In this document: positions 14,093 through 41,433 of the stretch, in pieces
Layout of the letters: each line of letters starts with the position of its first letter
Numbering within the stretch: position 1 is the stretch's first letter
DNA from: Ampullaceana balthica
Taxonomy: Eukaryota; Mollusca; Gastropoda; Lymnaeidae
Length of the DNA stretch: 64,000 nt
Assembly (NCBI GenBank): GCA_944989445.1
Contig: CALYLW010000169.1
Span: 1,200,811-1,264,810, forward strand
Reading direction: 5' to 3'
Notes under the pieces: model-generated
Seen by the model: only the letters and a program-made list of their open reading frames with translations
Database searches by the model: none
What the model was told of the DNA's origin: nothing
Made by a program: the position numbers and the translations under genes

Positions 14093-14321
14093 ATGAGTTC
14101 TCAGTTTCTTATTCCACCAACCAAAGGATGTCTGGTGTCCTTGGTGACCTTGCTGACCTTGACCCGGTTAATATCCTGTCAGACCATCAACTCGCACTGT
14201 GAATATCTGGTGGGGGCAGCTTCAAATGGGGCACCAGTGCCGGGGCTCAAACTCGATTCCCCTTTCAAAATCTACACCAAGGCCAAGGTTCAGGAAGTCA
14301 TGGGCGGTCACCCCATCCAAG
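14093..14321 (+). CDS. Alternative first coding exon 1a (signal peptide)
   Basis: The start is ATG at 14093, six bases after an in-frame TTG. The peptide has a hydrophobic stretch (CLVSLVTLLTLTRLISCQ) typical of a signal peptide, then SHCEYLV and PFKIYTKAKVQEVMGGHPIQ. It ends in phase 1 at a CAAG|GTCAGT donor. The layout and donor are the same as in exon 1b (18847-19051), so one is probably a duplicate of the other. Confidence 0.8.
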
Positions 14322-14845
14322 GTCAGTAGAACTCAAGTAAATGACTTTGCCGTTTGAGTAAATTTAGATTTAATTTCAAATAAATACCTTTTTGCTCTCA
14401 GGATTTGCTTAGCTTAAAAAAGAAGTAAGTTTGGGTGAAACGACTTTTTTTTTAAAGCGTATACTACAATACAAGAAATACATTTATACATTATTGTAAT
14501 GTAAATGTAGCAGACTTGAAACTAAATCTCATAGTTTCTATAATAATAATAACAAACAATCAATATACATAATTTGCAACCTCTGTCACCTCTGTCATGT
14601 CTGTCTGTCCGTGACGCTACTAAATTTAGAAAGCAGCGCATCTAATTACAGCACCAAAAATAACACTTTTCGAACATTCCGCATAAGATTGTTCAATATG
14701 ATAATAAATGAATCAAATAAAAATAAATAAAAGTTCTGTAGTACATTATTTATTATTCTGATGTGTATTTTTTCAACATTAATAGATTTGAGCTGAAATG
14801 TATTCATTTTGAAAACTTCCGTCATTTTTGACGGGTAACACACTA

Positions 14846-14944
<99 letters not shown>

Positions 14945-17900
14945 GTAATAATAATAATATAGTGATAATTTATATTGCGCTGTATCCCAGTAAGGAACGG
15001 GGTCACAGCACTTTACATGAAGATAATAACATACATATACGTTTCAAATAAACATTCATATCATAACAACCACATAAATGGCATTACGTTACACATAAGC
15101 TACATTAATCATTAAAAGAAATGTAGTTTCCTTAATTTTGAAAATAAATTTTGAAAAGATGTGTCTTAAGTGCCATCTTGAAAGACTTGGTAGTTGGAAT
15201 ACTACGGATGTGTAATGGTAGAGAAATCCATTGTATGGCTGCACAAAAAGAGAAAAACCTTTCACCAAAGTTTTAGCGCGTGTCTTAGGAACAGAAAGAA
15301 TGCGTATATCTGCAGAAGAGACCGACAGAAGTTCGGTAAATTAGGAAGGGCATGAGTCAGAAAACAAGTTGTGACAGAGGATGGCCAGTTTATAATCCAT
15401 TCGGGCTTGTATAGGTAGCCAATAAAGAAGCGGAGTAACATGTTCATGTCTTTTGCCTTAAGAACCAGTCTGGCAGCTGAAATGATACAATTGACCGTAC
15501 TTATTTTAATAACATACAATAAAATACTCTTTTTGACACACACTTCAGGTGACTCAACTCTATTTCTAATACATGTTCAAAAATAACATTGGGCATTCAC
15601 GTACGATCTTCAAACCTAAATGATACGTATACGATCTTCAAATCTAAATGATACATATACGATCTTCAAACCTAAATGATACGTATACCATTGACAGCCC
15701 GCAATCAATCCACACAAAAAATGCTTTTCTCCCCAAGCAGTATCTCTCAATTGTCTAGTTAACTCATATTTCCTCACAGTCTATATCTCTCTGTGGAGTT
15801 ACGTTACCTAATTTGATCAGGATAATAATATATGTGTTTGTGTAATGTACAATTTTGCAAGAAAAAAATTGATAATTTTCACACGAGTTTATCTTTTGTT
15901 TTTGCACACAAATCAACGAAACTTAGAGGGAACGTTGACCTGGAGTCTATATTAATCATCTTCACGTCTATATCACTTATCTCAGAGTCGACTCCCCTTA
16001 TCTTCCAGTCTATATTCATCATCTTCACGTCTATATCACTTATCTCACAATCGACTCCCCTTATCTTCCAGTCTATATTCATCATCTTCACATCTATATC
16101 ACTTATCTCACAGTCGACTCCCCTTATCTTCCAGTCTATATTCATCATCTTCACATCAGTATCACTTATCTCACAGTCGACTCCCCTTATTTTCCAGTCT
16201 ATATTCATCATCTTCACATCTATATCACTTATCTCACAATCGACTCCCCTTATCTTCCAGTCTATATTCATCATCTTCACGTCTATATCACTTATCTCAC
16301 AGCCGACTCCCTTAATCTTCCAGTCTATATTCATCATCTTCACATCTATATCACTTATCTCACAGTCGACTCCCCTTTATCTTCCAGTCTATATTCATCA
16401 TCTTCACATCTATATCACTTATCTCACAGTCGACTCCCCTTATCTTCCAGTATATATTTACCGGTACCGTAAATGTTCAAAATTTCAACTTCATTGTCTA
16501 TCGAAATATAGAAACAAGATAGAAGTCGTACAGAGTTAAGAGAGGCAAAAAAAACACACACCACCCACACACACCACCACGCACCCACGCACCACACACA
16601 CCACACACGCACCCACACTCACTAGCACGCACGCCGTAGCGCCGCGGGCGTCTAGTTGTTTTTAAATAAAAACTCCGTCATCCATTCAACGTTGATATTC
16701 ACTTCCTTCCTTTAAATACATTTTTTCAAGCTTCCCAGCTATTTACATTAAGCAAAGTCAGACAATTATTGTATAAACATCATCTCCCCCCGCTCCTCGC
16801 ACATCCCATCACTAATTTATTATGTTAGTATGGGGGCCCATCCATAAATGACGTCATGAGATTTTGGCCGATTTCTCCCCCCCCCCTTCTTGTCACACGT
16901 CGTCACAAAAGGTTAGACCCCCCCTCCAATATGGCGTCACAAAGCTTTTGCTCCCCCCCCTAAGTATGCATTTAGTGTAAGGCTGCACTCTAATGTCGTA
17001 GCACATGTGAAGCCATTTAAAACTACATTAAATAAATCGTAAGCAATGAAATTGTTAAGTGGAGCTTTAATTTAAAGTTGCCCATTTTTGATGTGACGTC
17101 ACAGTTCTTAAACATCCCCTCACCCCTCGTCACGCATACTTACAAATGTGTGACCCCCTCCCCCCTAGGCGCGTGACGTCATTTATGGACGGCCCCTACG
17201 CACCATTCCTCAGTTGTTTTTTTTTAAATTTAAAATCTTCTGTTTTTCGACTTGTTACATCTTCAAGTAAACACGAGCAGCAAGGTGGTGAATGAATGAG
17301 TGATGTCCCCTTGAGGCCTTTACAGTTTCTGTGGTGACATGAGACAGAAGGGAGAACACGCGTTCTATATTTAATATGGTCATGGAGGCAAAATAAAGAA
17401 CGGAGACAAAGAATGTACCGAAAGCCTCTATTTATATTTAAAATAAACACACTTACTAAAAACAATTGAGCCGGGACTTCGTTGTCATTGCCAAAAATGA
17501 GAGAGTTCGCCGCAAGCTTTAATATTTGAATAACGTTGTGAATAATTCAATGAAAGTCAACTGAGTGCTCAAAAATTTCTTATAGAAATATCCGAAAATA
17601 ACAATTAATGAAATTATTGATTGGCATGACACATTCCCACACATTCTTTGGGTTGAATTATCTAATGGTAACATATTTTTATGCAATCCTCGAAAGATTA
17701 CGCTTACACAAATGGATACTGTATAAGCCACAGAATACAGTGAAAATGGATATATGTTTGCTCATTGTCTAGCCCCCCTGACTCGTCAGAAGATTTTAAA
17801 AAAAGTACGGGTTACAAATGAACTGAAATTAGAATTTCTAAATTTATCCCAGACCACAATTGTACCATCTCGGTCTTTGAGGGAAAAAAAACTTCCTAAC

Positions 17901-20900
17901 AGACAGCCCTAAAGGAGAGCGCTGACCTGACCTTTGACAACCTGACACACAGGCATGACAAGAGCCGCTTTTCTCAACAACAAAAAAAAGGAAAACAAAA
18001 CACTGAGTTATTTCAGACTCAACGTTGTCGCTATACTTTTTGTACGAATGAAATCAGCCGTTTATAAATATTATGGGTTGTTTAAAAATGTAAACTGATG
18101 GGTTTTTTTTTATTTTAGGCCAAGCAGCTGTTTTCGCTTGTTCATCGTAACCAAAGGTTAAAGGTTTGGGGCCAGAAAGAGAGATTTATTGATTTAATGG
18201 TACTCGGAAATCAAAATTCGTACACGAGTGCGTCGTAGAGCAAAAATGGCTTACAGCTGGATTTAGCCCTCTACTTGAACACTGTCTCACTGGCTATCCC
18301 ATCCAGAGATCCTCAGCCTTTTCTATGCTTTATCCGAACACATATTTTATCAATGTCGATCACATTCGAGAATTTGAAGGTAGACATTAAAAAAAAATGT
18401 TTCTCGATAAAAGGTTACACAGAGCCAAAATATTGATATTTTTCTTGATGTTAAATTTGTGGCATAGCCACTGAGCCACTAGGCTGGCTTAAGGTACGGT
18501 CTCACCGCTCGCACCTCCAGAGGTTCACTCAAGTCTAAAATCCCATCTCGAAACCTTCAAGGGTCACATGCATCCAAGACGGGGGAACCCTTGTTCTACG
18601 GGGGTCTGGGCACAGGAAGTTCGGCGGAGGTACAGGAGACAGCAGTCATCACGATTTGACAGCACACCGTGCTCTACTCTGTTTTAAAACCTAGATTCGC
18701 TCTTAACACTTAACCTCCCGGTCTCTTGGTGAGGGGACGCTACTCTAGGTCTGACCACAGAAAGGAGGGGGAAAAGCAGCTATCGCTGTTCCGGAATACA
18801 GAGTCATCGATCGACTTCTAAAAGTCTCTTCCTCTAAGAAGTCATCATGCTGACGTCAGTGCTCGTGTTACAAGTCTGTCTGCAGATTGTGTTTGTTTCC
18901 CGCGCTGTCGTGTCCCAGGCGCCGACCGACCAGACCAGCCACTGCAGTTATCTGGTCAACTCTAAGTCACAGTTCCAGGAGAACGCCGCGCCCTTTAAGC
19001 TCTACACGCGGTCCAGGCAGCCCCGAATCACCAGCGGCGACCCCGTGGAAGGTCAGTGAGAGCGTGTCCATCAGTGTCGCGTCAATGTCCAGTCTTGTAG
19101 TTCTTAGAGTGCTGGGTTTTCTTAAAATATGTATTCTCTGTGAAATTTCTCAAAGATTTGGCTGTGCCTTAACTGCTTCGTGAGACAATGGACCTCGCTT
19201 CATGAGATATTGTATAATTTTAACTTCTTCCCAATGATCATTAAATGGAACTTTGAATTATTTAACTGGTGTGGCATTGTTTTGAAATACAAATGATTCT
19301 TAGTCGTAAAGTTATATTTTAGTTGTGGTTTAGTCTAATGCAGAGCCTATCGCAATACAACTTATGTACACGGAGAATAAGTCTATGAGTAAGTTTGACC
19401 CATTTCGCACAGAGAAAAACTATCATTAAAAAAAATTGATGAAAAGTTTTAGAAGTCTAAACACAAGAAATATACTCACTGTTAATGAAATCTACTTACT
19501 GTTAATGAAATCTACTTACTGTTAATGAAAGATGCTTACTGTTAATCAAATAGATATACTGTTAATGAAAGTTCGTCACTTATATACCGAGCCATTGATT
19601 AAATATGTACTTAAAACAGCAGCCAAAAAATCAAACAACGCCTTAACAGAGGAACGGAAGCAGAAAATAACACCACAAAATTAAACAATAAAATAATTTC
19701 CGCCAATAAAATTAAAATCACTAAATTAAATTAATTATTGAGTAAAGCTTCTATTTTTATTTTAAAATTGGATTTAATAAAAACTGATGTTTTTGAAAGT
19801 CTCTCATATGTCAACGCTTCAAGTATTCTTCTAAACATTTAGATCCAATGAGAGATCTGAAGTTTATATTTTCCGCCTTGTTCTGTAGCAGCTCATGAAG
19901 AACTCATCAAGCCGAAACTTAACAACATTAGAATTAGAAGAATTTTTTTTAAAAAGCGTTCTAAACACTTTATTTGAAAACTGTTCCATGTCGTCACGTG
20001 TCTTGAACACAGTCTGACTAACAGCTGACGCAATGATAAAATAAGCAACGTTATTTACGTCTGGAACAGCAACTATACTTTAACACGCTACAGGCTACGA
20101 CCAGTCGATAAGTTGTTATTTATTTTAAAAATGATTTATTCCAAAGCTTTGCAATTTGAATATAATTTTTTTAAATTAATAACCCAATAATTTCTATACA
20201 TTATGACGGCCCAACATGTTTTCATATGTACAATGTAGGACTTACAGTACACCCAGAGAAATTAATATTGAACTGCTCAATCCCTATTTAATTGACTTCA
20301 AGTTAACTTACTGTAAACCATGTTTTCGTGGTGCAACGTGCGAAGGATGTTTTTGGAGTGCGTAGATACTCTGTTTTTAAAACGACATATCAGTATTATT
20401 AGACATTTCATTTTTCAAATAAATGCGTCTTTGATTTTATTACTGAATTGGTCAGTTGGTAAGTGTCATCTATAATTATTCGTCGGTCTCAGACTACATA
20501 CGTTTAACTACGCCCCCCCCCTTCTCCAAATAGATGAATAGGAAGAAGAAATGTGAGTTTTCAATTTTGATTAAAGATGTTATTCGAATCAACTAATAAA
20601 AGTAGACATCGGCCAAAACACATTCATTGGTTGTTGTTGTCAGAGGCATAGCTTAAATATTTTGTGCCTGGGAAAAACTATAAGATTGAACAACCCACGT
20701 TTATTTACTATTTTATCCTTGTTCACATATAATGTGACATTAGAAGCCTTATTTTGGCGCCCCTGTAACTTAACACCCGGGGACATATGTTCCCCCTGCC
20801 CTCCCATCGCTACACATCTGGTTGTTGTGGAAGGCACTGATCTTTGAAATTAATTATAAACAATTTATTTCCCCCTTTTGGCCACCATTTCACGATCAGT

Positions 20901-23900
20901 GTGTTTTGTTGTCCCCCTTGTCACAGCATGACGTCAGTGCACTATATCTCTCAAATGTATGTGAAAAGAAAAAACAAACAAATGAATTAAAACTATGGCA
21001 ACAAGGAAGCAGTCGTCATGTGGATGACATTTCTTATAGTGTCTTGATTAAAAGATTCAATTTCTTTGTAGTAAAATATAGAAATATGTTTCAATGAAAT
21101 TGTTATTGTTACTGCAATTCCAGTCTGTAGTCTCTTTAGCTCAGTTTTAACAAAATTAGTTCACTAACAGTAAAAGTTAACCTGACGTTCCGTTACAAGT
21201 TGCAGTTTGTGCAGACACATACGATATATCCAAGAACTAGTTACAGGAAATGGAATAATTTAATTGTTGACGGCCATCACTCGGCAAAAAGCACGGCGAA
21301 GAATTAGGCAAACAAATAATTTTAAAAAGTTATATTGTTTTGGCTGTAATTGTTGCCCCTCCATGTAATTGTTGCCCCTCCATGTAATTGTTGCCCCTCC
21401 ATGTAATTGTTGCCCCTCCATGTAATTGTTGCCCCTCCATGTAATTGTTGCCCCTCCATGTGAAGAATGTAGCCTCCACACCTCGTTCATACTCAACAGC
21501 AATAAATTTCATTGATCATTCATAGAATTATAATAGCAGATTATAAATTATAATCAATCTCTCTTTAAGGTGCGTGGTCACGCATTTATGTGACAGACGC
21601 CACGCAGCAATTTTGAGAATCAATATGCATAATTCCCGTTGTCTGTATGTATGGATATAACTAGGTGGCGTTGTGAAATTTGTAATGCTGTTAGGTGGCG
21701 CTGCGATCAACATAATAAAATAAAATTACAGCACCAAAAAAACAACACTTTTCGAACGTTCCGCATAAAATTGTTCAATATGATAATAAATTAATCAAAT
21801 AAAAATAAATAAAAGTTCTGTATTACATTATTTATTATTCTGATGTGTATTTTTTCAAAATTAACAGATTTCAGCTGAAATGTATTCATTTTGAAAACTT
21901 CCGTCATTTTTGACGGGTTACACTAGTAATAATATAATATCTGTGTTTGGGGGGTGTAAAATTTTGCAACGAAAAATGCATGCTGTGAAACTTTGCACAC
22001 GATTTTGTTGTTTTGCACACGGACCAACGAACCTTAGAGGGAACATTGAAATTATACTAGACGCCCCGCGGCGTAGCATACGCCACAGACTTGCTCATGG
22101 AGAGTGCAAAGAAAGTGGAAAAAGAATGGACACAAACTACAGCGCGAAGAAATCAAAACAACGCGAGTGAACATCGTTTGGGGGGGGGGAACTGCCAACT
22201 CATTGTTGGTTTTGATGCATTCGCACTGTGGTTATCTACCTGCTCACCACCCTTTATCACATTAGCTTGCCAACCATAAACTGTGATTGGCCGACCCTAG
22301 CGAACAAGCATGACGAATGACGCTCGCTGGGGTCGACCAATGTCTCGAGACCAATAATGGTCCTTGCGTTCACTTGCGTTGTTCCTTCACAGAATAACAT
22401 GAGATTCGTAGTGTATTGGTTATCACGCCCGCCTTAAACGCAGACGGTCCTGGATTCAACCCCATCGAAAACATTATTTTTTAATTGTTAAAAATGTGTA
22501 TTTGTGCCCGTTCTTTTCCCCCTTTTTTGCGAACATGGCCGACCCTAGCGCAATCACAGTTTTGGGTTGGCAAGCAAGGGTGGTGAAGGGTGGTGGGCAG
22601 GTAGATAGCTGCAGTGCGAATGTCTCAAGACCAACAATGCGTCGGTGGTTCATCCCCCCCACGTTAACTCGCGTTGTTTTGATTTCTTTGTGCTGTAGTT
22701 TGTGTCCGTTCTTTCCCCCTTTCTCTGCACTATCCACGAGTAAGTCTGCGGCGTATGCTACGCCGTTGGGCGTATCTAGTACTTTAGAATACGATAAAAC
22801 GCACGATATCTTATCTATTACAGACGCTCATTCTATTAATTCTATACTGAAGATTATTGTGTCCTACATTTACCCATTGTTTATGTCTAGTCTTGCATTG
22901 TTATAAGAGTTTTAAATGTTGCTAAAGTGTTGCTCAGACAACCCACTCCACGCCCTGACTTACAGACCGCAAAATGGAGAACTTGTATGTTTTTATTCTT
23001 GCATATAGGGAATAAACAAAATGTTTTTTATTCCTATGTCTATCCGGGGGTTGTATTAGATTATCTTTGTGTTTCATTTCCCAGTTAGAGTTAATTGCTT
23101 TCAGTATTATTACTTCTTTTCGCTTTGTCCTTCTTTACTCTAGTCTCTAGTGTTTTAAAAGAACAACACTTTACGTTTAATGAGTTAACTAATGATGTTA
23201 CTCTTGTCAATGTTGTATATGCCCCAATGACCAATCTTGTCAATGTTGTATATGCCCCAATGACCAATCTTGCTGCTCTTTTTTGAATTTGTTCTAGTTT
23301 ATATTTTCTTTGGTTGATGGGTCCGATAAAGAAAATGCATATTCTAATATAGGTCTCAACCAATGTTCCCTTTAAGCTCTGCGGCTGAGCGAATGCGCAG
23401 TTATCATACCGACGCCACGCAGCAGTTTAGAATTACCGCACAGCAAATTTTGTTTTAAAAAAAATGTTCACAAAAAATGGATGCTGTGCAATTTTACAAA
23501 CCAGTTGTTTTTTTTTACTTTACACACGGACCAACGAACATTGGTCTCTACAAAGTAAGGCAGCGTTTTAGTTTTCTTTTTACATTTGTAAAAGTTTATC
23601 TTTATAAAGATTATATGAGAGGGCTCATCTGTTTTAATAACAAGATTTACTTGTGACTTACAATAAAACTTGTCTCTGGCCCGGGTGAGTCGAGATAGTA
23701 AACAAAAATATCGGTTTAAGCGATAACATGTTAAATATGATCACAAGTGAAAAGAGTTTCAAATGAATTATAACCCAAGCATTCTTTGACGATACTGTTG
23801 TTCTGTGGATCACTAAGCATTCTTTGACGATACTGTTGTTCTGTGGATCACTTTGGTTCACGTGGACTTCTCGGGCTCCGCGACCGCTCTAGGAAAGTTC

Positions 23901-26900
23901 TAAACACTTCCAAGACATAATATATAAGATTAGGCCTTACGTAAAGGTCTCACAAATACTTTATTTCTGTTGGGGGCTTTGTAGTGACAAATTTCGGGAA
24001 CCACTGTCTTGAAGTAAATTTTTTAAAGCTATGATATTGTGCTTGATCTTTACCCACCATACCATGATCTTGTGCTTGATCTTTACCCACCATACCACTC
24101 TGAATGTGTTTTGTACCTCGGCATTGCATGACTTGGCGAAAACTGTAAGGTAGACGACTTAAGTAGGGATTAGAAAGGGCAGTTAAAAGGTAGCGTTTCA
24201 ATTAATTTGCCAGTTTTTAACTGTTAGTTTTATTCTAGAGCACTGGTGGCCAGGCCTGTAGTAACTAAGAGCCATTTTAAAATATAAAAAAATTGTTGAG
24301 AGCCGCATGGAAGCACTATGGGTCATTAAACATGGCTTGGAAATCTTCCTATAATACTTGTAACATATCTCTTTTATCAATTGTCTGTGAGCCGCTATAT
24401 GAACACAGAAGAGCAGCATGCGGCTCGCGAGCCGTGGTTTGGCCACCGTTGTTCTAGAGAAACGATTTCCAATTCTTCAGATCTTATCTTATTTAATGTT
24501 ATATATTATGTTATCTTATCTTATCTTAGCTTATCTTATCTATTACATACACTCATTCAATACAGAAGATTATTGCGCACTACGCTTATCTATAGTTTTT
24601 ATCTAGTCTTGCACTTTTATTAGAGGTTTAAATGTTGATGTGATACATTGATACATCGCTTTGTCACGTGTGTGTTTACCAAATAACAGTCATCTTGTGG
24701 TGTTGTGGAGCAAAGATTAACTAAAGCGAATGCACAATCATAATCATAATATGGTAGTAATGATAAAGATCAAAAGACGAAAATCATTATTCGTTAACGA
24801 TATGGTAAATAGGTAATTGTAGAAGCGGTACAGTTTCATTCCACCTGTGTAGGAAAATCTTTTACCACCCCCCCCCTTCCCACCGACTTGCTGTATGACC
24901 AGGTTCAGATGATGAAGTACGAAGAGCCCCATTGTCACCACGACAGGACATCTATTATCCTGGCCTTATTTTGAGATCACTGGCCTGACATTTATTAGCG
25001 ACCTCCCACCCCCACCCCCCATCAGCCTGAACAAGTTGAGAAAGTCCGTATCTTTTTAGCCATCGTCTGTTCGTTAGCGGTACACAATCTCAAGATGTAG
25101 TTTGGACACACGAAAATAATAGGTCTTTTCTCCATGTATGTCAGAAGCATTAATGTGCTATGTAAACACTCCATTGTTAACCGTTATGTAAAGATGGGAA
25201 TGATATTAAATGATATACCAAACTAGTCTATAACTATAAATGATATACCAAACTAGTCTATAACTATAAGATCATTCTTTGTACATCAATGATGTCCTCT
25301 ATACATTGTATATTTTACATTTTTGATATTTTATGCTAACAATTATAAGATAGGTACACCGACGACGTGTGTGTCTTCTTATCTTTATCTTATCTATACA
25401 GACGCTCCTTCTATGCAGAAGATAGTTGCGTCCACAGACCATGACAGATGATCTGTTGGTAAGTGATGCAGCGTTCACATGACGGCTTTGTGGGTTCCAC
25501 GCATTACCCAGCCTAACTACGTGTAGTGTTAGGTACCCATTCAGAGCGGGGTGACTCAGGGACGCCCTAGGCCCCGGGAACAAACCTTCACACGGATTCG
25601 AACCCGTGACCATCGGTACGACAGTCCAGTGCGCTGCCACTCGACCACCGCGTCCCACCGCGTCGGTGGTACAATAGAATCCTGCTACGAGACCTTATAA
25701 TAATAACTACTGCTTTGACCTGATAAAACGGTTTATTTTGTGTAAACATTTACGTTATTGTAAACACACACTCATAACAGGTGAAAGAGTTGAGGTAACA
25801 CAACTTTTCTTGTCTTGTCCCGACAGTGACCATCGGGCCCTTCAGCCAGCACCTCAACTTTTTCAACTTCACCGACTTCATCCTGTACGCTACCCCATCC
25901 AACACAGCGAACATAGAGATTGAAATATTCGGGGGCCCTAACCCCCATGTCGGGGTCTTTCAGTTATTTGACCAGTGGAGAGCGGGGGCCAGTGGGCTGA
26001 ACTGTAACCCAAGGTCAAGGTAAGTGCAATGACCATGTTAAAAGTACAACTCGACCGCTAGGTGGAGTGATTTACCGGTGTACCATGATGGTGGCCGGTG
26101 ATTGGTGAAGGGCCGTCCAGAAATGACGTTACGCGATTCTGGCCGATTCCCCCCCCCCTCGTCACACGTCGTCACTAAATGTTAGGCCCCTCTTGAAATA
26201 TTACGCCACAAAACTTTGCCCCCCCCCCATTTAAAATCCACATTTCTTATTTGAAACTTAGCATGTTTCAAATCACTTTATTGTCACTTACACTAAATAA
26301 ATTGTAAGCAAGCAAATATTTAAGTGGAACTTTCGTTTAAAGTTGTGCGCTTTGATGTGACGTCACAGTTGTTAAACATCCTCGTCACACATCGTCACAA
26401 ATGTGTGAACCCCCTCCCGCCCTAGGTGCGTGACGTCATTTATGGACGGTCTCTGTCCGAATGGTGTGTTGTCGACAACCTGGTCAGGGAGAATTAATGA
26501 TGATCTCCAAGGATGGCGTAAGGGGAGGGCTGTGGTCGAAAGCGCAGGTTGAAAGGGGGAATTTATGCCAGGTGTCTAAAACATAGTGTGCCAAAGATTA
26601 GAATTTTTATTTTAGGGACGCTAAAATTCAGTTTTGAGCCACTACTTCATGGCACGACCCTGTAGACAGTTCATCTGCGATGCTACTTTATGTTTTATAT
26701 AGTTGTGACGTTTGTGTTCGTGTTTTCTTGAAATGCGTGCCTAGATTGTGGTCGTGCTGTTAAAAAAGTATGCGATTTAGCGGTTCTATAGTGCATACTT
26801 AACTTGTCTTAGTGGTAGATCGTACAAGTATTAGATCTTGGAAAATTCAGATTCCTTTTGAAAAAAAAACGTTCACTATCAGATTGAAAAATAAACATGC

Positions 26901-29900
26901 TAGAAAAGACGGGAGTAATTGGAAATCAGTTCATAATTCATTTAAAAAAATTTATACAAATCTTCAATCAAATGAAAATATACCCACTAAGGCACGTTCA
27001 CACAATCTATAACGAAAAGAAAGACACATAAAACAAACACACGCACACACACAAACACACTCACACATACACACACTCTCTCTCTCTCTATCTCATAATT
27101 CTTGTTCCTAATTTGTTTTAACCATTTGTTTTTCTTAATTTATTTGTTTCCCATTTATAATTTATAGTTGGGCCTAATTTATTAATGCCCCCATTTTTGT
27201 TGTTCTAATGTATTTTCCCCCGATTTATAATTGCTCATAATTTATTTGTTCTCCATTCATAGTGGTTCCTAATTTATTTTTAACAATTTATTGTTCTTAA
27301 TTCATTAGTTCTCCAATTATCGTTGCTCAAAATTTATTTGTCCTCCACTCATAGTTTCTCCTAGTTAATTTGCTCCTTATTTATTATTACTAATAATTTA
27401 TTATTTCTCAATTTATTTTTGTTCATAATTTATGCGATCTTCAGTTAAAGTTATTCACTACTTATGTTTGTCTTCCCCACTCGCCAGGAGTGAAGACTCA
27501 GTGGGTGCGTTTGAAGAGCGCCTCCTGGGCATCTTCAAGCGATACTACCCCAACAACCCGATGCTGATGCGCTACCAGCCCCCGGCCAGGAACCAGGTGT
27601 CGGTGCTGTGGTGGCCGACCAAAGAAGCCCTGGCCTACCCGGAGATCAAGTTTGTGTGAGTATTTAAATCTGTGCTGGACTTGTCCAATGCAATCAACAA
27701 TACGAATTAATTGGAAAAATCTTTCAAGATACATGTATTTTGAAAATTTTTGAGTGTGTTTAAGTTTGCCATTATTGCAATCATTGTTTTCAAACGGGTG
27801 TCACATATTTTTTTTAATGCATTTTTTACTTTGTAATTTTATTCACAGTTTCATTTGTTACTACATGAAGATTTTGTATTAAAACCTGCTCCTCGTGAAC
27901 ACAGCTTACTGTTTGATAGCCCCTGGGGTCCTGTAGGGCAGTGCTTCTCAAACTTTTTAGCATGGCGGACCGGCAAGGATTTTTTCCATTGCACCAGGGA
28001 CCGGTACACTATTTTCCCTGCACTGACAGTTTTGCCTGTCCTTTTTTAGACCTTCTGCGGACCGGCGGTGGATGGCCCACGGACCGGCACCGGTCCGCGG
28101 ACCACCACTTTGAGAAGCACTGCTGTAAGGCAAGGAACACATCACAATTGAAGCCACTGTTAAATAATACGCCTTCATTTAAGTTCATGTTGTCTTGAAG
28201 ATGTAGACTGCTTGAGAGTTTAATAATTGTATTGTGTCAGAATGAGGAAATGGATGTCATGAAAATGTGCTCTAAATTTAACTGACCTGTTTTTTTTAAG
28301 GGGGTTTGAGGTTCTACCATGAGAAGTACAAGGGCACCAGGAAACATGTAAATTCTTACCGGTAGGTTCGAAATTGCGCTCTGTTGGGACATGGGCAACA
28401 TAGCTGTGTTTAAAATTTTTAGTAATTTAATGGATCTTAATCTTAACAAATTAAAGTCGTTAAAAATGTTTTAAAAAATAGCTACACGTTTGCTATAATA
28501 AGACATTTTCTAGAAAGCGTTGCCTTGTTCTCATCCGTTGAGCTTCTGTTTGTGTTCAGATTTGGCTGAAGTTTGCATAATGATGATGATGGCCTTCTGC
28601 TAACATGCTATTTTCGCTCTAATGTACACTGAACCATATTTATATTGTGGTGTATTGTTGCATTGTCAACCATGTCTTGGTGTTAGAGATTAAACTTTGG
28701 GAACTTCAGAAAAATATTCACAACCTAAAGCACCAACCCTCATTTTTTTTTCTTATGTGGTAAAGGCGTCTCCAACACATTAGTCAACTGAAAGTTCGTG
28801 TCTAAACCACGATAAACTCCAGCTTAGTATCCCTTTCTTTTGTCATGGCTATAGAATAGCCGTCCCTAGACATACATATTCCCGCATATATATTTTCTAA
28901 GTTTAAACAATATTTTTTCCCCCTATGTGTTGAGATATCATTTTGACATGGTTCATAGAACAATATAATGCGACCTTCTGAAAAAAAAATATTCTGTCTT
29001 CCTAACTGATAACTTGTGGATGTAGTAGGCTGGTCCAAAGTAATTCCTCTGGTCCTCTCTTCTCCCTCACCCCTCTTCGGGGAAAGTTTGAGTTGAATGG
29101 TCTTGACAACCGCAATGGGCTATTGAGTATCTAATGAATGCATTTAGAAAAAAATATTGTTTGAACTAATTGTCTATTTTTAAATCCCTTATATTAACTT
29201 GCTTTGTAAGTTTAATCGGACATCCGAACCGACTATTTGTTTATAATTCTTTCACATGCCAGTTCCGTTCACGCTTTGACGCCTACCGTCGATGTTCACA
29301 CTCCCTACCGTCCCTGAGACCGGTTTTAAAACCAGGGGAGATAATTGAGTTTCAGTCTGTGAATGTCGCGTTTAGTTTAAACATAATCACTACTTTTAGT
29401 TATGTCTCATATATAAGAGATTTATATTCAAAAACTTTGTTTTTACATCTATTTTTAGAGCCAACTTAAAATCAATGAACAACTGGTTTAAAATTGAGTC
29501 GACTACCTGGAAGGTCAACCGACCAGTGGACCAGTGGGCAAGTAAGTACACGTCTGAGACCTGCCAGTTGTACAATACATACTACTTATTCTACACTGAG
29601 ACCTGCCAGCTGTACAATACATACAACTTATTTTACACTGAGACCTGCCAGTTGTACAATACATACTACTTATTTTACACTGACACCTGCCAATTTTACA
29701 ATACATACAACTTATTTTACACTGGGACCTGCCAGTTGTACAATACATACAACTTATTTTACACTGAGACCTGCCAGCTGTACAATACATACAACTTATT
29801 TTACACTGAGACCTGCCAGTTGTACAATACATACAACTTATTTTACACTGACACCTGCCAGTTGTACAATACATACAACTTATTTTACACTGAGATCTGC

Positions 29901-31412
29901 CAGTTGTACAATACATACAACTTATTTTACACTGACACCTGCCAGTTGTACAATACATACAACTTATTTTACACTGAGACCTGCCAGTTGTACAATACAT
30001 ACAACTTATTTTACACTGACACCTGCCAGTTGTACAATACATACAACTTATTTTACACTGAGACCTGCCAGTTGTACAATACATACTACTTATTTTACAC
30101 TGACACCTGCCAGTTGTACAATACATACTACTTATTTTACACTGACACCTGCCAGTTGTACAATACATACAACTTATTTTACACTGAGACCTGCTAGTTG
30201 TACAATACATACAACTTATTTTACACTGGGACCTGCCAGTTTTACAATACATACTACTTATTTTACACTGAGACCTGCCAGTTGTACAATACATACAACT
30301 TATTTTACACTTATGTAAAGTGCATGACAATTATTATTTGTATTTTAGATGTTAGATGTTAGATGCTATATTTTGCTCATATGAACATGAAATTTTTGTT
30401 ATAATGATATTTATAATTTTAAGGTATTTACCGTTAATAAAATGTAACGTTTACTCCCAACCCATTTTTTCAAATAAACGGAACCAATTGAGAAGAACGG
30501 ATTATTTGACATCTATAAGAAATGGCAACTGTCCACTACTATTACACTGGATTATTTTTTTCTGGTTCGTCAAGATAGAAGTTGCATAAACTTCTGCAAT
30601 AAAAAGAACAAAACAAAACAATCTAGGCAATCCGATGATGTCAGATGACGATTAAATTTATATAATCTACACGTACAGGAACGGGCATCCTTATAATAAA
30701 AATATGTTTGTTATTCTTACATTTATCGGATCGCTTCAGTGCATTACAAGCAGGCAATTGTGAATAGTGTGGCAATAATTTTTTAAAATGTGTAATTCTT
30801 ATTTTTCTACTGAAATATGTGCTGCCGTAGTCAGATCTTGTTAGCAACGTAATTGTGAAATTACCCGATTTTTAACAAAAAATTCTCAACATTTATGTGC
30901 ATAGACTGGCGTTCCTCACACACTGGGCCATCTTAACGCATAGGCCCGTTGGGCATTTGCCCGGGGGCCCTCGAGCATAGGGGCCCAATGGGAATATGTT
31001 TATTTATATATATTATGCATATATATTTTTTCCTGCCGGGGGGGGGGCGGGCGCACTCTTTCTTTGCCCTGGGGCCCAAAATGGTGTAAAGACGGCTCTG
31101 CTCACACTTGTCTTTTCGGCCGTGCATCTCTTACGCCTGCAAAGAGTCTCTAATATGTTAATTTTCACGAAGTGGAGATTTTTTAAAAAAGTCTTAGTAA
31201 AATAAATGGCCCCGTTTGAAATAATCTTGCAAGCTTTTTTTTTAAACCTTTAAATTAGAAGGAAAAAAAGTTAAAATTTGCGTTCTTTGTTTAAAAAAAA
31301 AGAAGAACTTTGACCTTTAAACTCTGCAGACACGGAGCGTATACTGACACAGTATCAGTCCATGCAGAGCAACATGCGAGCCATGGAGAGGCGTCTAGAC
31401 CAGCCCGTGTGA
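14093..31412 (+). CDS. Unrecognised secreted protein with two alternative first exons
   Basis: Either first exon (1a 14093-14321 or 1b 18847-19051) ends in phase 1 and joins 25827-26019, 27488-27655, 28311-28361, 29459-29541 and 31330-31412. All junctions are GT-AG with matching phases, and totals are 807 or 783 nt (268 or 260 residues). Shared parts include VTIGPFSQHLNFFNFTDFIL, IEIFGGPNPHVGVFQLFDQW, RLLGIFKRYYPNNPMLMRYQ, NQVSVLWWPTKEALAYPEIK, FYHEKYKGTRKHVNSYR, NNWFKIESTTWKV, and a helical tail ILTQYQSMQSNMRAMERRL. The exons use G/C-ending codons in an AT-rich surround, which supports real coding. The mature protein has a cysteine near its N-terminus (SHC) and one in LNCNP, so one disulfide is possible, plus one NFT glycosylation site. 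I do not recognise the family and assign no function. Poly(A) signals are at 31493 and 31829. Confidence 0.8.
14645..14843. repeat. Dispersed 200-bp repeat, family R, copy 1
   Basis: The run from ACAGCACCAAAAATAACACT to TTCCGTCATTTTTGACGGG is almost the same as 21722-21925, about 90% by eye. Both end in TTTTTGACGGGTWACACTAG and AT-rich DNA. There is no coding capacity or clear terminal inverted repeat. Confidence 0.8.
14845..15540 (-). mobile_element. L2/CR1-like LINE 3' end with (TTA)n tail
   Basis: On the minus strand the region 15500-15150 reads, with frameshifts, ISAARLVLKAK, YWLPIQARMDYKLAILCHN, RILSVPKTRAKTLGERSFS and SLPLHIRSIPTTKSFKMALK. This is the conserved C-terminal end of L2-type reverse transcriptase ORFs. 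It is followed by about 190 bp of 3' region and then a perfect (TTA)n run (14845-14958 on the plus strand as (AAT)n), the usual microsatellite tail. The copy is 5' truncated and frameshifted, so it is dead. Confidence 0.8.
15602..15688 (+). repeat. 28-bp tandem repeat, 3 copies
   Basis: The unit ACGATCTTCAAACCTAAATG plus ATACGTAT is repeated three times with two substitutions. Confidence 0.9.
15842..15936. mobile_element. Fragment of hAT-type MITE family M
   Basis: ACACAAATCAACGAAACTTA then GAGGGAACGTTG matches the right end of family M (compare 22010-22048). The left half is missing, and the 63-bp tandem array starts about 10 bp after its right end. Confidence 0.6.
15946..16450 (+). repeat. 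63-bp minisatellite, 8 copies
   Basis: The unit begins TCTATATTCATCATCTTCAC and contains CTTATCTCACAGTCGACTCC. Period 63 is a multiple of three, so long open frames (FTSISLISQSTPLIFQSIFI repeats) run on both strands. This is a consequence of the array, not a gene: one copy has a 1-bp insertion (about 16375) that shifts the frame. It is in the intron between alternative first exons 1a and 1b. Confidence 0.95.
16832..17196. mobile_element. MITE family G (GGGCCGTCCATAAATGACGTCA ends), copy 1
   Basis: The left end GGGGGCCCATCCATAAATGA is inverted at the right as TCATTTATGGACGGCCCC. Subterminal C-runs and CGTCACA repeats also pair. The flanking TA could be the target duplication. A second copy is at 26108-26452, and similar ends border 34756-36533. 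Non-coding; superfamily not assigned. Confidence 0.8.
17197..18846. other. Region upstream of first exon 1b
   Basis: No coding exon is supported. 18500-18846 becomes clearly GC-richer than the surround and probably holds the promoter and 5' untranslated region for exon 1b. I see no reliable TATA box. Confidence 0.4.
18847..19051 (+). CDS. Alternative first coding exon 1b (signal peptide)
   Basis: ATG at 18847 opens a signal peptide (LTSVLVLQVCLQIVFVSRAV) and then SHCSYLVNSKSQFQENAAPF and KLYTRSRQPRITSGDPVEG. It ends in phase 1 at GGAAG|GTCAGT, the same donor and phase as exon 1a. SHC-x-YLV, the PFK-[IL]-YT core and the GxPxxG end are shared with exon 1a, so the two are paralogous. It could be spliced to 25827 as the 5' end of the same gene, or be the proper first exon while 1a is a relic. 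Confidence 0.82.
19052..20643. other. Intron, no coding exon seen
   Basis: It holds a short CTGTTAATGAAATCTACTTA tandem repeat (about 19477-19570, four to five copies). Otherwise it is AT-rich with no recognised element. Confidence 0.5.
20644..20830. repeat. Dispersed repeat, family D, copy 1
   Basis: AAATATTTTGTGCCTGG, CCTTGTTCACATATAATGTG and AAGCCTTATTTTGGCGCC align in order with 41955-42140 (GATATTTTGCGCCTGG, CCTTGTTCACTTATAATATG, AAGCCTCATTTTTGCACC). The two are similar over about 180 bp. Element type unknown. Confidence 0.7.
21345..21458 (+). repeat. 19-bp tandem repeat, 6 perfect copies
   Basis: TGTAATTGTTGCCCCTCCA is repeated six times without a mismatch, which implies very recent expansion. 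The NNYMEGQQLHGG-type frames across it are artefacts. Confidence 0.97.
21553..22048. mobile_element. hAT-type MITE family M interrupted by a family R repeat
   Basis: The left part (CAATCTCTCTTTAAGGTGCG ... GACGCCACGCAGCAATTTTG) and the right part (ATGCATGCTGTGAAACTTTG ... CGGACCAACGAACCTTAGAG to GGAACATTG) make one family M element once 21722-21935 is removed. So the R repeat inserted into an existing M copy. Confidence 0.7.
21722..21935. repeat. Dispersed 200-bp repeat, family R, copy 2
   Basis: Nearly identical to 14645-14843, starting AATTACAGCACCAAAAAAAC and ending TTTTTGACGGGTTACACTAG. Its position inside a family M element gives at least one clean boundary. Confidence 0.8.
22066..22782. 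mobile_element. Fold-back element, 240-bp inverted arms around a tRNA-like core
   Basis: The left arm (about 22066-22310) and right arm (about 22530-22782) are inverted copies. Examples are GACACAAACTACAGC against GCTGTAGTTTGTGTC, AATCAAAACAACGCGAGT against ACTCGCGTTGTTTTGATT, and CACCACCCTTTATCACATTA against its near complement at about 22575. The outer ends are ACGCCCCGCGGCGTAGCATA and TATGCTACGCCGTTGGGCGT, flanked by CTAG on both sides. The 220-bp spacer has a tRNA-like stretch (22402-22472). No transposase frame is visible. Confidence 0.8.
22402..22472 (+). pseudogene. tRNA-like sequence (degenerate, Val-type backbone)
   Basis: TCGTAGTGTATTGGTTATCA resembles the D-arm/A-box region of metazoan tRNA-Val, and GGTCCTGGATTCAACCCC resembles a B box with one change (ATTCAA for GTTCGA). 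The anticodon stem has mismatches and the acceptor stem is weak, so it is a tRNA-derived relic or SINE head, not a working tRNA. It sits at the centre of the inverted repeat. Confidence 0.6.
22787..23590 (-). mobile_element. LINE 3' end (same family as 38713-41433), dead copy
   Basis: On the minus strand 23363-23091 encodes GPINQRKYKLEQIQKRAARL then VTSLVNSLN, the C-terminus of a Jockey/CR1-type reverse transcriptase, with an internal 33-bp duplication (LVIGAYTTLTR twice). DNA at 23544-23590 and 23335-23360 aligns with 38740-38830 of the larger LINE. A 300-bp 3' region ends with the segment GGACACAATAATCTTCAGTA ... GAGCGTCTGTAATAGATAAG, which is shared with the SINE at 25373-25656. A family M MITE (23361-23543) interrupts it. 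Confidence 0.78.
23361..23543. mobile_element. hAT-type MITE family M, full copy with target duplication
   Basis: It starts CAATGTTCCCTTTAAGCTCT and ends CGGACCAACGAACATTG. The flanks are gtctcaac (23353-23360) and gtctctac (23544-23551), 7 of 8 identical. Removing the element and one flank restores LINE sequence matching 38740-38800. This copy defines the true ends of family M. Confidence 0.88.
23780..23852 (+). repeat. Two-copy tandem duplication (about 37 bp)
   Basis: CATTCTTTGACGATACTGTT then GTTCTGTGGATCACT occurs twice in a row. A similar two-copy duplication (CTTGTGCTTGATCTTTACCC) lies at about 24030-24100. Confidence 0.85.
24241..24451. mobile_element. hAT-type MITE with perfect 8-bp duplication
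   Basis: The left end CACTGGTGGCCAGGCC is inverted at the right as TTTGGCCACCGTTG. The flanks are ttctagag at 24233-24240 and 24452-24459, identical. The motif GAGAGCCGCATG / GCATGCGGCTCGCGAGCCG occurs subterminally. 211 bp, non-coding. Confidence 0.9.
24484..24635 (-). repeat. LINE/SINE tail fragment
   Basis: TCTTATCTTATC repeats are followed by ACACTCATTCAATACAGAAG then ATTATTGCGCACTACGCTTA, the reverse of the LINE/SINE 3' terminal segment. It could be a severely 5'-truncated copy of either element. Confidence 0.7.
25207..25269 (+). repeat. 31-bp direct duplication
   Basis: AAATGATATACCAAACTAGT plus CTATAACTATA occurs twice in tandem. Confidence 0.9.
25373..25656 (-). mobile_element. tRNA-derived SINE
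   Basis: On the minus strand the head starts GGGACGCGGTGGTCGAGTGG (A box TGGTCGAGTGG) and has a perfect B box GGTTCGAATCC (plus 25594-25604). A GC-rich body follows, and then the 3' segment GGACGCAACTATCTTCTGCA ... GAGCGTCTGTATAGATAAGA with a GATAA-type simple tail. The 3' segment matches the LINE 3' end at 22787-22910. The RNA polymerase III promoter boxes look intact. Confidence 0.88.
26108..26452. mobile_element. MITE family G, copy 2
   Basis: It starts AGGGCCGTCCAGAAATGACG and ends GTGACGTCATTTATGGACGG. The interior CACTAAATAAATTGTAAGCA and TTTGATGTGACGTCACAGTT match copy 1 (16832-17196) in order. It lies 90 bp after the donor at 26020 in the secreted-protein gene. Confidence 0.82.
27025..27435 (+). 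repeat. AC/TC microsatellite and degenerate 30-bp tandem array
   Basis: 27030-27095 is an (AC)n/(TC)n run. 27100-27430 holds about ten degenerate units of AATTTATTTGTTCTCCATTT plus ATAATTGCTCCT. It ends about 50 bp before the exon at 27488. Confidence 0.7.
27939..28122. mobile_element. hAT-type MITE (Charlie-like ends)
   Basis: CAGTGCTTCTCAAACTTTTT at the left is inverted as CCACTTTGAGAAGCACTG at the right, with GCGGACCGG/CCGGTCCGC subterminal pairs. The flanks ctgtaggg (27931-27938) and ctgtaagg (28123-28130) match at 7 of 8. It lies in the intron between exons 27488-27655 and 28311-28361. Confidence 0.9.
29175..29450 (+). mobile_element. Family H element, short copy, at an exon acceptor
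   Basis: It has the left end TTTTTAAATCCCTTATATTA and right end GTCTCATATATAAGAGATTT then CAAAAACTTTGTTTTTAC. Internal sequence (TTCCGTTCACGCTTTGACGC, GTCAGTCTGTGAATG-like) aligns with 33161-33625. The right end lies about 8 bp before the acceptor of the exon at 29459. Confidence 0.7.
29555..30310 (+). repeat. 42-bp minisatellite, 18 copies, next to a splice donor
   Basis: The unit is GAGACCTGCCAGTTGTACAA plus TACATACAACTTATTTTACA and CT. 756 bp equals exactly 18 units. The array starts 13 bp after the donor at 29542. Several copies alternate GAGACC/GACACC and AACTTA/TACTTA, which suggests a higher-order 84-bp unit. Period 42 keeps long frames open on both strands (CQLYNTYNLFYTET repeats), so these frames are not genes. 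Confidence 0.96.
30923..31100. mobile_element. Short DNA transposon with 8-bp flanks
   Basis: CTGGGCCATCTTAACGCATA at the left roughly mirrors AATGGTGTAAAGACGGCTCTG-type sequence at the right, with GGGGCCC pairs inside. The flanks are ctcacaca and ctcacact (7 of 8). 178 bp, non-coding. Confidence 0.7.
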
Positions 31413-38712: not shown

Positions 38713-41433
38713 TCAAATACCACCTCTATTGACAGAAGATGCATATTCTAGTGCAGGTCTCACCAAAGTGAGGTAGCATTTTAGTTTTATATCTCTATTA
38801 CATTTGTTAAAGTTCCTTTTTATAAAGCCTAAGGTTTTGTTTGATTTTTTAATAACTTCATTGACATGGGGATTCCATGATAGTTTCTCATTTATTAAGA
38901 CTCCTAAGTATTTTGCATCTTTAGTTTGGGTCAGTTCTTTTCCATGAATGTAATATTTTGAATTTATTTGTTTCTTTTTCTTTGTTACTCTTAACAGTTG
39001 ACACTTTTCTGGATGGAAAGACATACTCCAGTTAGTTTCCCATTTTATCAATTCATCTAAGTCTTTTTGTAAAATTTTGCTATCTTGTTCTGATTTTATT
39101 GTTCTATAGATTATACAATCATCAGCAAATAGCCTAACTTTTGTACCTGTTGAGATGTTGTTGGGTAAATCATTTATATAAATTAAAAAGAGTAAGGGAC
39201 CTAGCACAGTTCCTTGTGGAACTCCTGAGTTAACCTTTATTGGTGCAGATTTAGATCCATTAATTATTACAGTTTGCTCCCTGCCCAAAAGGAAGTCTTG
39301 GATCCAGTGATGTAAGGAACCTGAGATTCCAAAGTAGTTAAGTTTTTTGAGTAAACTAAGATGGTGAACTTTGTCAAATGCTTTTGAGAAGTCTAGTAAT
39401 ATTGTATCTATTTGATCATTTTTGTCCAAGCCTTTTGATAGTTCATCTATTAAACCTATTAATTGTGTTTCACATGATCTGTTTTTTCTAAAGCCGTGTT
39501 GATGTGGGCATAGGGCATTATATTTGTCAAGGTGGTTAACTATTCTACTATATATTATGTGTTCTAGTAATTTACAGGTGATACTAGTAAGTGATACAGG
39601 CCTGTAATTACCAGGGTCTGATTTATCCCCTTTCTTAAAGAGTGGACTTACATTAGCTAATTTCCAATCCTGGGGCACTTTACCCTGGTTTAGAGAGGCT
39701 TGAAAGAGAACTACAAGGATTGGGGACAGTTCATTGCTTAGTTCTTTTAATAATCTTGCAGGCAAATCATCTGGGCCAGTAGCTTTGTTTATTTTTAAGT
39801 TTTTTAGGAGTGAATGTATACCTATCTCATCTACAGTTATGTTGCCTATTTCCTCCATTTTATTTAAATTTATTAAAACTTCCTTGTCGCCTGAGGCAGA
39901 AAAAGATGATGCAAAATATGTGTTAAGGATATTAGCTTTAGTTTCATTATCATTATAGGTTTTATTATTTGAGCCTTTTAGTGTGGCTATTCCTGAAGGT
40001 TCCATTTTTTTAGATTTGATAAAGGACCATAAGTTTTTATTGTTATCTTTGGTAATTACATTGTTTATATATTCATTTTGGAGGTTCCGACTAAGTTTTT
40101 GTGTCAAGTGTTTAATCTTTAAGTATTTTTTGTGTATCCTATATGAATTGGTAGCTTTATATTTCTTAAATAAGTTCTCTTTTAGTTTGCATAGCTTTTT
40201 CAATCTAGAATTGAACCAGCATTTGTTAATTTTATTTGATGTTAGTTTTGTTGGAACATTCTCATCCATTATAGTTTTTAGATTTGTTTTTATATCTTTC
40301 CAAATTTCTTCTACTGGGCTATTTGTGTTAAATTTACTTAGGAAAGTTTGTTGGAAGTTAGCCGCTGATTGGTGTAGTTTTATTGAATTACATTTATTCC
40401 AAAGATAGATTATTCTTCTAGGTATCTTATTAATTTTAGTTTTTATTGTATTGGTGACCCTAACAATATCATGGTCGGACAGTCCTGGAATTATTTTATA
40501 GTCTAACACGAGTCCTGGTCTATTTGTTAGGAATAAATCTAGTGTTTTATTTTTCCTTGTTGCTGTTTTTACTATCTGTTCTAGGTTTATGTTGTTTATA
40601 GTGTCTAGGAAGTGTTCATTAATTTCTTTGTTAGTTTGATGGTTATCAATTGTATAATTTTTCCAATTTATATCTGGAAGATTAAAGTCCCCCATAATCC
40701 ATAGAACTGCATTTTTATTATTCTCTTTTATGAAAGTTAATTGACTACAAAGATTGTTCATGTATTCTGGGTTTGTATTCGGAGGTCTATATATACTGCC
40801 TACAATAAGTGGGGATGAGTTTGGTGTAATTATTTTACAATAAATAGACTCTATATTAAAATTTTGCTGTGTAGTAATTTCTTCAGCTATGATATTTGAT
40901 TTAATTGCAAGTAGCACTCCTCCATAATTGTCTGATCTGTCTTTCCTAAAAATATTATAATTGGTGTTTAAAATCTCAGAGTTATATATGTTGGGGTTCA
41001 ACCAAGTTTCAGAACCAGCAATTATGTCTGGTTCTTCTGTTTTTATAAGTAGTTCTAAATCTGGAATTTTATTTTTTAAGCTTTGGAAATTTACTATTAG
41101 TGTTTTGAGAATGTTTTGATTATTATTATTATTAGATTTTTTATGGGTAATTTTATGGGTTTGTGTGGTTGGTTTCATTTTATCTAGTGGTTTATTTATA
41201 AAAGGATTAGCCAAAACACTGTAAGAGTTTGTGGTGATAAGGTCCTTATAGTTAAATAAATCTGAACTGATTTGGGGCAACCCACAATGTATGCAGTGCC
41301 AAGATGCATATTTATTTCTTAGGCCTATTGCTTTGTGCTTTGGTGTGTTAGAATGCAGGCATGCAATGTGGTAAAATTTTGCAAGTGGTAAGGAACTTTT
41401 GCAATTAGAAAATTGAGTACCGTACCTATTTAT
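38713..41433 (-). CDS. LINE ORF: zinc finger, endonuclease, reverse transcriptase (3'-truncated)
   Basis: An uninterrupted minus-strand frame of about 906 codons runs from 41433 to a stop at 38713. The first 50 residues give FSNCKSS, KFYHIACL and WHCIHCGLPQISSDLF, a PHD-like Cys/His cluster whose upstream part is cut by a stop. An apurinic-type endonuclease follows (IIAGSETWLNP, GDFNLPDINW, SDHDIVRV), and then the reverse transcriptase (KLANVSPLFKKGD, NYRPVSLTSI, HGFRKNRSCETQL, LLDFSKAFDKVHH, NSGVPQGTVLGPLLF, LFADDCIIYRT). The FADD catalytic motif is intact. The match is to the Jockey/CR1 superfamily. The frame ends abnormally after RPALEYASSV: the WDP-type continuation and 3' region are absent and the DNA switches to sequence next to the 37430-38600 array. 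With no stops it is young, but without its 3' end it should not be able to mobilise itself. Confidence 0.9.
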   Translation of the reverse strand: MNRYGTQFSNCKSSLPLAKFYHIACLHSNTPKHKAIGLRNKYASWHCIHCGLPQISSDLFNYKDLITTNSYSVLANPFINKPLDKMKPTTQTHKITHKKSNNNNNQNILKTLIVNFQSLKNKIPDLELLIKTEEPDIIAGSETWLNPNIYNSEILNTNYNIFRKDRSDNYGGVLLAIKSNIIAEEITTQQNFNIESIYCKIITPNSSPLIVGSIYRPPNTNPEYMNNLCSQLTFIKENNKNAVLWIMGDFNLPDINWKNYTIDNHQTNKEINEHFLDTINNINLEQIVKTATRKNKTLDLFLTNRPGLVLDYKIIPGLSDHDIVRVTNTIKTKINKIPRRIIYLWNKCNSIKLHQSAANFQQTFLSKFNTNSPVEEIWKDIKTNLKTIMDENVPTKLTSNKINKCWFNSRLKKLCKLKENLFKKYKATNSYRIHKKYLKIKHLTQKLSRNLQNEYINNVITKDNNKNLWSFIKSKKMEPSGIATLKGSNNKTYNDNETKANILNTYFASSFSASGDKEVLINLNKMEEIGNITVDEIGIHSLLKNLKINKATGPDDLPARLLKELSNELSPILVVLFQASLNQGKVPQDWKLANVSPLFKKGDKSDPGNYRPVSLTSITCKLLEHIIYSRIVNHLDKYNALCPHQHGFRKNRSCETQLIGLIDELSKGLDKNDQIDTILLDFSKAFDKVHHLSLLKKLNYFGISGSLHHWIQDFLLGREQTVIINGSKSAPIKVNSGVPQGTVLGPLLFLIYINDLPNNISTGTKVRLFADDCIIYRTIKSEQDSKILQKDLDELIKWETNWSMSFHPEKCQLLRVTKKKKQINSKYYIHGKELTQTKDAKYLGVLINEKLSWNPHVNEVIKKSNKTLGFIKRNFNKCNRDIKLKCYLTLVRPALEYASSVNRGGI

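What the first reader, a model, noticed from the sequence alone, without database searches (positions are those of the whole stretch)
14093..31412. Secreted-protein gene of unknown family with twin homologous first exons
Exons 1a (14093-14321) and 1b (18847-19051) each encode a signal peptide, a SHC-x-YLV motif and a PFK-[IL]-YT segment. Each ends in phase 1 at the same kind of donor, and either can join the shared exon at 25827. This gives two mature N-termini on one body (268 or 260 residues). I do not recognise the protein family. The layout suggests alternative promoters choosing between two leader/N-terminal modules.
Basis: partly seen in the sequence, partly recalled or inferred. Interest (0 to 1): 0.75.

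Follow-up and report, generated by a model that had tools for sequence, protein, structure and literature searches.

The report
Snail secreted protein with twin beginnings
A freshwater-snail gene can start from either of two related first exons, putting two different front ends on one secreted protein that appears to have the same fold as a matrix-binding domain of human F-spondin; the layout is probably old and shared with another snail, so it is a solid but not startling find.

The parts
14093..14321 (+). Exon 1a: ATG, apparent signal peptide, Cys-bearing N-cap (SHCEYLV), strand 1 (PFKIYT), 1a-type loop ending HPIQ; phase-1 donor AAG|GTCAGT
   Evidence: matched by B. glabrata isoform X1 (P0006)
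18847..19051 (+). Exon 1b: ATG, apparent signal peptide, SHCSYLV, PFKLYT, basic loop TRSRQPRITSGDPVE; phase-1 donor AAG|GTCAGT
   Evidence: 68 of 68 residues identical in P0001
25827..26019 (+). Shared exon 2 (VTIGPF...PRS-R); acceptor CCGACAG, donor AAG|GTAAGT; conserved N-F-T/S sequon
27488..27655 (+). Shared exon 3 (SEDSVGAFEE...LWWPTKEALAYPEIKF-V); donor GT|GTGAGT
28311..28361 (+).
   Evidence: absent from 21 of 21 relatives; weak acceptor; would break predicted strand 185-194
29459..29541 (+). Shared exon 4 (ANLKSMNNWFKIES...VDQWA); last strands of the predicted Reeler fold
31330..31412 (+). Shared last exon: C-terminal helix TERILTQYQSMQSNMRAMERRLDQPV and stop

Best explanation
This is one gene with two alternative, homologous coding first exons on one body. 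It makes two secreted proteins of 243 (1b) and 251 (1a) residues. Each is a signal peptide, one Reeler (reelin-N)-type beta-sandwich and a C-terminal helix. Each first exon supplies the leader, one of two conserved cysteines, the first beta strand and the loop into strand 2, so the choice of start swaps one edge of the domain and leaves the rest unchanged. Each exon presumably has its own promoter. The 1b product keeps the ancestral basic loop ([ST]RS[RK]) and is the likelier binder of glycosaminoglycan or matrix. In the 1a product that motif is gone and the loop carries a Glu, which would change its partner or where it acts. Shown: exon structure, homology of the exons, both types of start on an identical body in B. 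glabrata. Predicted: the fold. Inferred: promoters, cysteine bridge, ligand and tissue.
Against: No RNA evidence from the window's own species. Models are of middling confidence (mean pLDDT 62.9 and 63.8, pTM 0.53), and the stretch from the leader's end through the Cys helix is under 50 (residues 19-44 and 18-48). Pfam finds no Reeler and the PDB sequence profile none. The 1a form's lead over unrelated folds is small (9.6 against 7.0). In the window itself the net charge of the 1a and 1b loops after strand 1 is equal (+1 each), so the charge argument rests on the pattern across species. No 1a-type protein was found beyond P0006 and P0011 in three searches.
Confidence: 0.8

Rival explanations
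1. 1a is a relic: the first exon of a former tandem or whole-gene duplicate whose body is lost, no longer used in this species.
For: 1a diverges faster than 1b: window against B. glabrata 24 of 43 against 34 of 38 identical residues from the Cys on. Bradybaena P0011 has a 1a-like start on its own body. The close relative P0001 is 1b only.
Against: 1a is open, keeps ATG, leader, Cys, strand and donor, and B. glabrata carries the same type on the shared body as a named isoform. No body-like match lies between 14321 and 18847 in the tblastn rows seen (the listing was cut within P0010).
Confidence: 0.12
2. The two starts belong to two different genes, and the join of 1a to this body in B. glabrata is an annotation artefact.
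For: P0011 in Bradybaena is a separate protein, listed with another contig length and locus number than P0009.
Against: P0006 switches at exactly the conserved phase-1 exon border (IQ|VTIGPF) and its body is identical to P0002. Exon 1a in the window has a matching donor and no body of its own in the window.
Confidence: 0.07
3. The body is a shell-matrix Reeler protein like Crepidula SMP1, and the two starts serve different mantle zones or larval against adult shell. (A reading of the role; it can hold together with the best explanation.)
For: Crepidula SMP1 is a gastropod Reeler shell protein expressed in the shell field (passages of PMC9365450 and PMC11401363). Haliotis shell matrix holds reelin-domain proteins (passages of PMC6003135).
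Against: No sequence comparison with SMP1 was possible. The family is kept in Elysia and Plakobranchus, which have no adult shell (recalled). No expression data.
Confidence: 0.25
4. It is an immune Reeler protein, like the arthropod defence (hdd11/noduler-type; recalled) proteins, with two inducible starts. (Also a reading of the role.)
For: A title in a reference list ties a Reeler protein to crustacean antibacterial immunity.
Against: The body is well conserved among heterobranchs. No sequence link was found.
Confidence: 0.12

Closest known systems
LOC106070421 of Biomphalaria glabrata (P0006 1a-type 'isoform X1'; P0002 1b-type)
   Same: Same body, same two first-exon types, same switch point.
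   Different: Annotated only as uncharacterized or hypothetical. No report of the twin exons appeared in the listings of my searches.
Reeler (reelin-N) domain of F-spondin (2ZOT, 2ZOU, 3COO)
   Same: Predicted fold over about residues 32-210 of the 1b form; best match for both isoforms.
   Different: 13-18% identity in the structural alignments; no thrombospondin or spondin domains; C-terminal helix; not detected by Pfam.
Crepidula SMP1
   Same: Secreted gastropod protein with a Reeler domain (passages).
   Different: The paper describes a Gly/Gln-rich disordered stretch before the stop; this protein has a predicted helical tail.
Genes with duplicated alternative coding first exons (UGT1A, clustered protocadherins; recalled)
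   Same: Homologous first exons joined to one common body.
   Different: Only two first exons, and they carry the leader and cut inside a single domain.

Membership tests
Reeler domain family (Pfam PF02014; accession recalled) | Match to the Pfam Reeler profile | tested here: not met
   0 families for both isoforms (260/268-residue forms) at E<=10; no Reeler match in any of 19 relatives scanned, of 21 found. So it is called Reeler-fold, not a Pfam Reeler member.
Reeler domain family (Pfam PF02014; accession recalled) | Reeler-type beta-sandwich | tested here: met
Reeler domain family (Pfam PF02014; accession recalled) | Conserved disulphide cysteines | tested here: inconclusive
   Two Cys conserved in 20 of 21 proteins; whether they bond, and match F-spondin's, was not checked.
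Reeler domain family (Pfam PF02014; accession recalled) | Secreted, heparin or matrix binding | not testable with these tools
   A signal peptide is apparent by eye (no predictor was run); binding was not testable.
Alternative coding first exons | Two ATG-bearing exons with compatible donors to one acceptor | tested here: met
Alternative coding first exons | Both forms expressed from one locus | tested here: inconclusive
   Named isoform X1 in B. glabrata plus an identical body in P0002; no reads from the window species.
Alternative coding first exons | Separate promoters | not testable with these tools
   Inferred from both exons being first coding exons 4.5 kb apart; no promoter scan was run.
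Crepidula SMP1 orthologue | Sequence orthology | not tested
   Its sequence was not fetched or compared.

The most novel reading that the evidence does not exclude
The common ancestor of freshwater and land pulmonates had this twin-start gene. Pond snails kept both starts on one body. Land snails duplicated the gene and gave each copy one start: Bradybaena P0009 keeps the 1b type, and P0011 keeps the 1a type on a body that then diverged. Alternative promoters thus turned into separate genes, with the earlier state still alive in pond snails. In support, with heterobranch rows only, P0011's body groups with land-snail bodies (95/95 and, mixture model, 96/95), while its exon 1 groups with pond-snail 1a (96/93 with all rows; 90/85 and 93/100 with heterobranchs only). 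Against: the exon-1 segment is short and the 1a rows are long branches. AU p for P0011's exon 1 with land-snail 1b exons is 0.055 with all rows and 0.21-0.23 with heterobranchs only. P0011's body with pond snails or with sacoglossans is not rejected either (p 0.065-0.079). With outgroups in, the body tree leaves P0011 unresolved. It rests on one sequence.
Probability: 0.35. Interest if true: 0.55.

Novelty: new member of a known kind. Interest (0 to 1): 0.38.

Why it matters
It gives a Reeler-type fold to a gastropod protein family that carries no Pfam domain. It offers a natural pair of proteins differing only at one edge of that domain, so the role of that edge in matrix or glycosaminoglycan binding can be tested directly. 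If the land-snail split is right, it is also a readable case of alternative starts becoming separate genes.

Tried and rejected
Third first exon: the exon-1 profile found only two sites above the shuffle level in the window. A second body for 1a in the window: none seen by tblastn with the window proteins and the relatives (the listing was cut at P0010, and one search shows P0011 onward at E<=1). Alternative C-terminal tails as in P0017-P0019 and P0021: no match in the window, best E 0.49 (two tails tried). Sequence routes to the family: Pfam, PDB phmmer and PDB profile gave no Reeler. A wider profile search returned the same 21 proteins, with only the 7,996 candidates sharing most words scored. 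Rfam: no match at gathering score. Papers, listings only: 0 for LOC106070421; 2 papers, neither on this by title, for alternative first exon + mollusc + signal peptide; 0 for reelin domain-containing protein + snail + mantle and for two further term sets. dN/dS of exon 1a could not be computed because no relative's DNA was fetched. Rows dropped: and the exon-1 trees P0017-P0019 were left out as close to P0012/P0014 (P0017 has Ser where 15 of 16 1b rows have Arg or Lys at the loop's seventh place; the 16th, P0021, has Gln), and P0010 lacks the exon. The body trees also leave out P0010, P0017-P0019, P0006 (body identical to P0002) and the window 1a form (same body as 1b). The root was placed by me on P0021.

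Full report
What was checked. Both start with ATG, are open, and end in phase 1 at AAG|GTCAGT. Either joins the exon at 25827 in frame. By those coordinates the introns to the shared exon are 11,505 bases (1a) and 6,775 bases (1b).

That segment is probably not an exon. The homology search with the 260-residue product returned 21 proteins, and in the alignment 21 of 21 run from KF[VI] or its equivalent straight into the AN motif without it. Its acceptor (GGGTTTGAG) is poor by eye, and it would fall inside a predicted beta strand, residues 185-194. A short transposon-like element lies just upstream (27939-28122). The likelier products are 243 residues (1b) and 251 residues (1a).

The exons are homologous and conserved as protein. 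A profile of exon-1 segments made without the window and without P0001 scores 81.5 bits at 1b and 40.5 bits at 1a; the next window hit is 9.5, and the best of 20 shuffles is 12.2. Of 29 aligned codons in the two conserved blocks, 13 encode identical residues, and 8 of those 13 differ in codon. 1a evolves faster than 1b: between the window and Biomphalaria glabrata the segment from the Cys on keeps 24 of 43 residues in 1a and 34 of 38 in 1b.

The arrangement exists in another snail. B. glabrata P0006, named 'uncharacterized protein LOC106070421 isoform X1', has the 1a-type start. P0002 from the same species has the 1b-type start. Their bodies are identical over 175 residues, and the switch falls exactly at the exon border. 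Physella acuta P0003 is named isoform X2 and is 1b-type. P0001, nearly identical to the window (4 differences in 175 body residues; none in 68 exon-1b residues), comes from a 915-base contig too short to hold the introns, so it is probably a transcript (inference). I did not see B. glabrata isoform X2 under that name, nor any read from the window's own species; two near-identical B. glabrata loci are not excluded. The window species is probably a freshwater pulmonate: its body groups with Physella and Biomphalaria (95/98).

How the two starts matter. The border of exon 1 lies at residue 68/69 of the 1b product, inside predicted strand 67-73. Exon 1 thus supplies the leader, a short helix with one of the two conserved cysteines (20 of 21 proteins have both), strand 50-56 (PFK[IL]YT) and the loop after it. 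In 16 of 16 1b-type rows (two pairs of them identical) the loop begins [ST]RS[RK] and the net charge of exon 1 from the Cys on is +2 to +7. In 3 of 3 1a-type rows that motif is gone, net charge is +1, -1 or -2, a Glu sits where 15 of 16 1b rows have Arg or Lys, and the last whole residue of the exon is Gln in place of Glu. In the window itself the loop charge alone does not differ (+1 and +1), so this is a pattern across species. Heparin binding has been shown for the F-spondin reelin_N domain (passage of PMC3117680). I infer that 1b keeps a matrix- or glycosaminoglycan-binding edge which 1a has changed. Promoter choice, tissue and ligand are inferred.

History. The ten more distant proteins (P0012-P0021) all have a 1b-type exon-1 segment, and the seven of them that were put in the body tree, which I rooted on P0021, fall outside the heterobranch group (100/99; P0017-P0019 were not in the tree). 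So 1b looks ancestral. The 1a-type rows form one group with all rows in (96/93). This includes Bradybaena P0011, whose body, on heterobranch rows only, groups with land-snail bodies (95/95; mixture model 96/95). The conflict between exon 1 and body suggests that the twin-start gene was ancestral and that land snails split the two starts between two genes. A local exon duplication within pond snails alone, which would put their 1a and 1b exons together, has AU p 0.035 (plain model) and 0.085 (mixture).

Limits of that history. AU p for P0011's exon 1 grouping with land-snail 1b exons is 0.055 with all rows and 0.23 and 0.21 with heterobranchs only. P0011's body with pond snails has p 0.066 and 0.079, and with sacoglossans 0.065 and 0.071, so neither is rejected. 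The 1a rows are long branches (P0011 and the window 1a are flagged so). With outgroups in, the body tree leaves P0011 unresolved.

Possible roles. Reeler proteins are known in gastropod shells: Crepidula SMP1, expressed in the shell field (passages of PMC9365450 and PMC11401363), and reelin-domain proteins in Haliotis shell matrix (passages of PMC6003135). Others act in immunity (a title in a reference list). The family is also kept in sacoglossan slugs, which have no adult shell (recalled), so an adult shell role alone does not explain it.

Verdict. The arrangement is already implied by public isoform names in Biomphalaria, so it is a new member of a known kind, with a testable evolutionary twist.

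Noticed in passing
window 27939-28122: Short hAT-like element (class named from recall) with matching ends (CAGTGCTTCTCAAA...) and near-identical 8-base flanks (CTGTAGGG/CTGTAAGG) inside the intron, just upstream of the doubtful 51-base exon.
   Followed up: partly
window 29554-30311: 42-base minisatellite, 18 copies at 94% match, starting 12 bases after exon 29459-29541; it makes long false open frames.
   Followed up: no
window 15944-16458: 63-base tandem repeat, 8.2 copies at 94% match, between exons 1a and 1b.
   Followed up: no
window 38716-41433 (-): 906-residue open frame with endonuclease and reverse transcriptase domains, as in LINE-type elements; completeness not checked.
   Followed up: partly
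proteins P0012, P0018, P0019 (unnamed contigs): P0012 and P0019 share one N-terminus and body but have two different C-terminal tails (RTEYQ... or QRKK...EGKSV), suggesting alternative last exons in other members of the family.
   Followed up: partly
protein P0011 (Bradybaena similaris): The annotated start of P0011 lacks a clear signal peptide by eye, so its first exon may be annotated incompletely.
   Followed up: no
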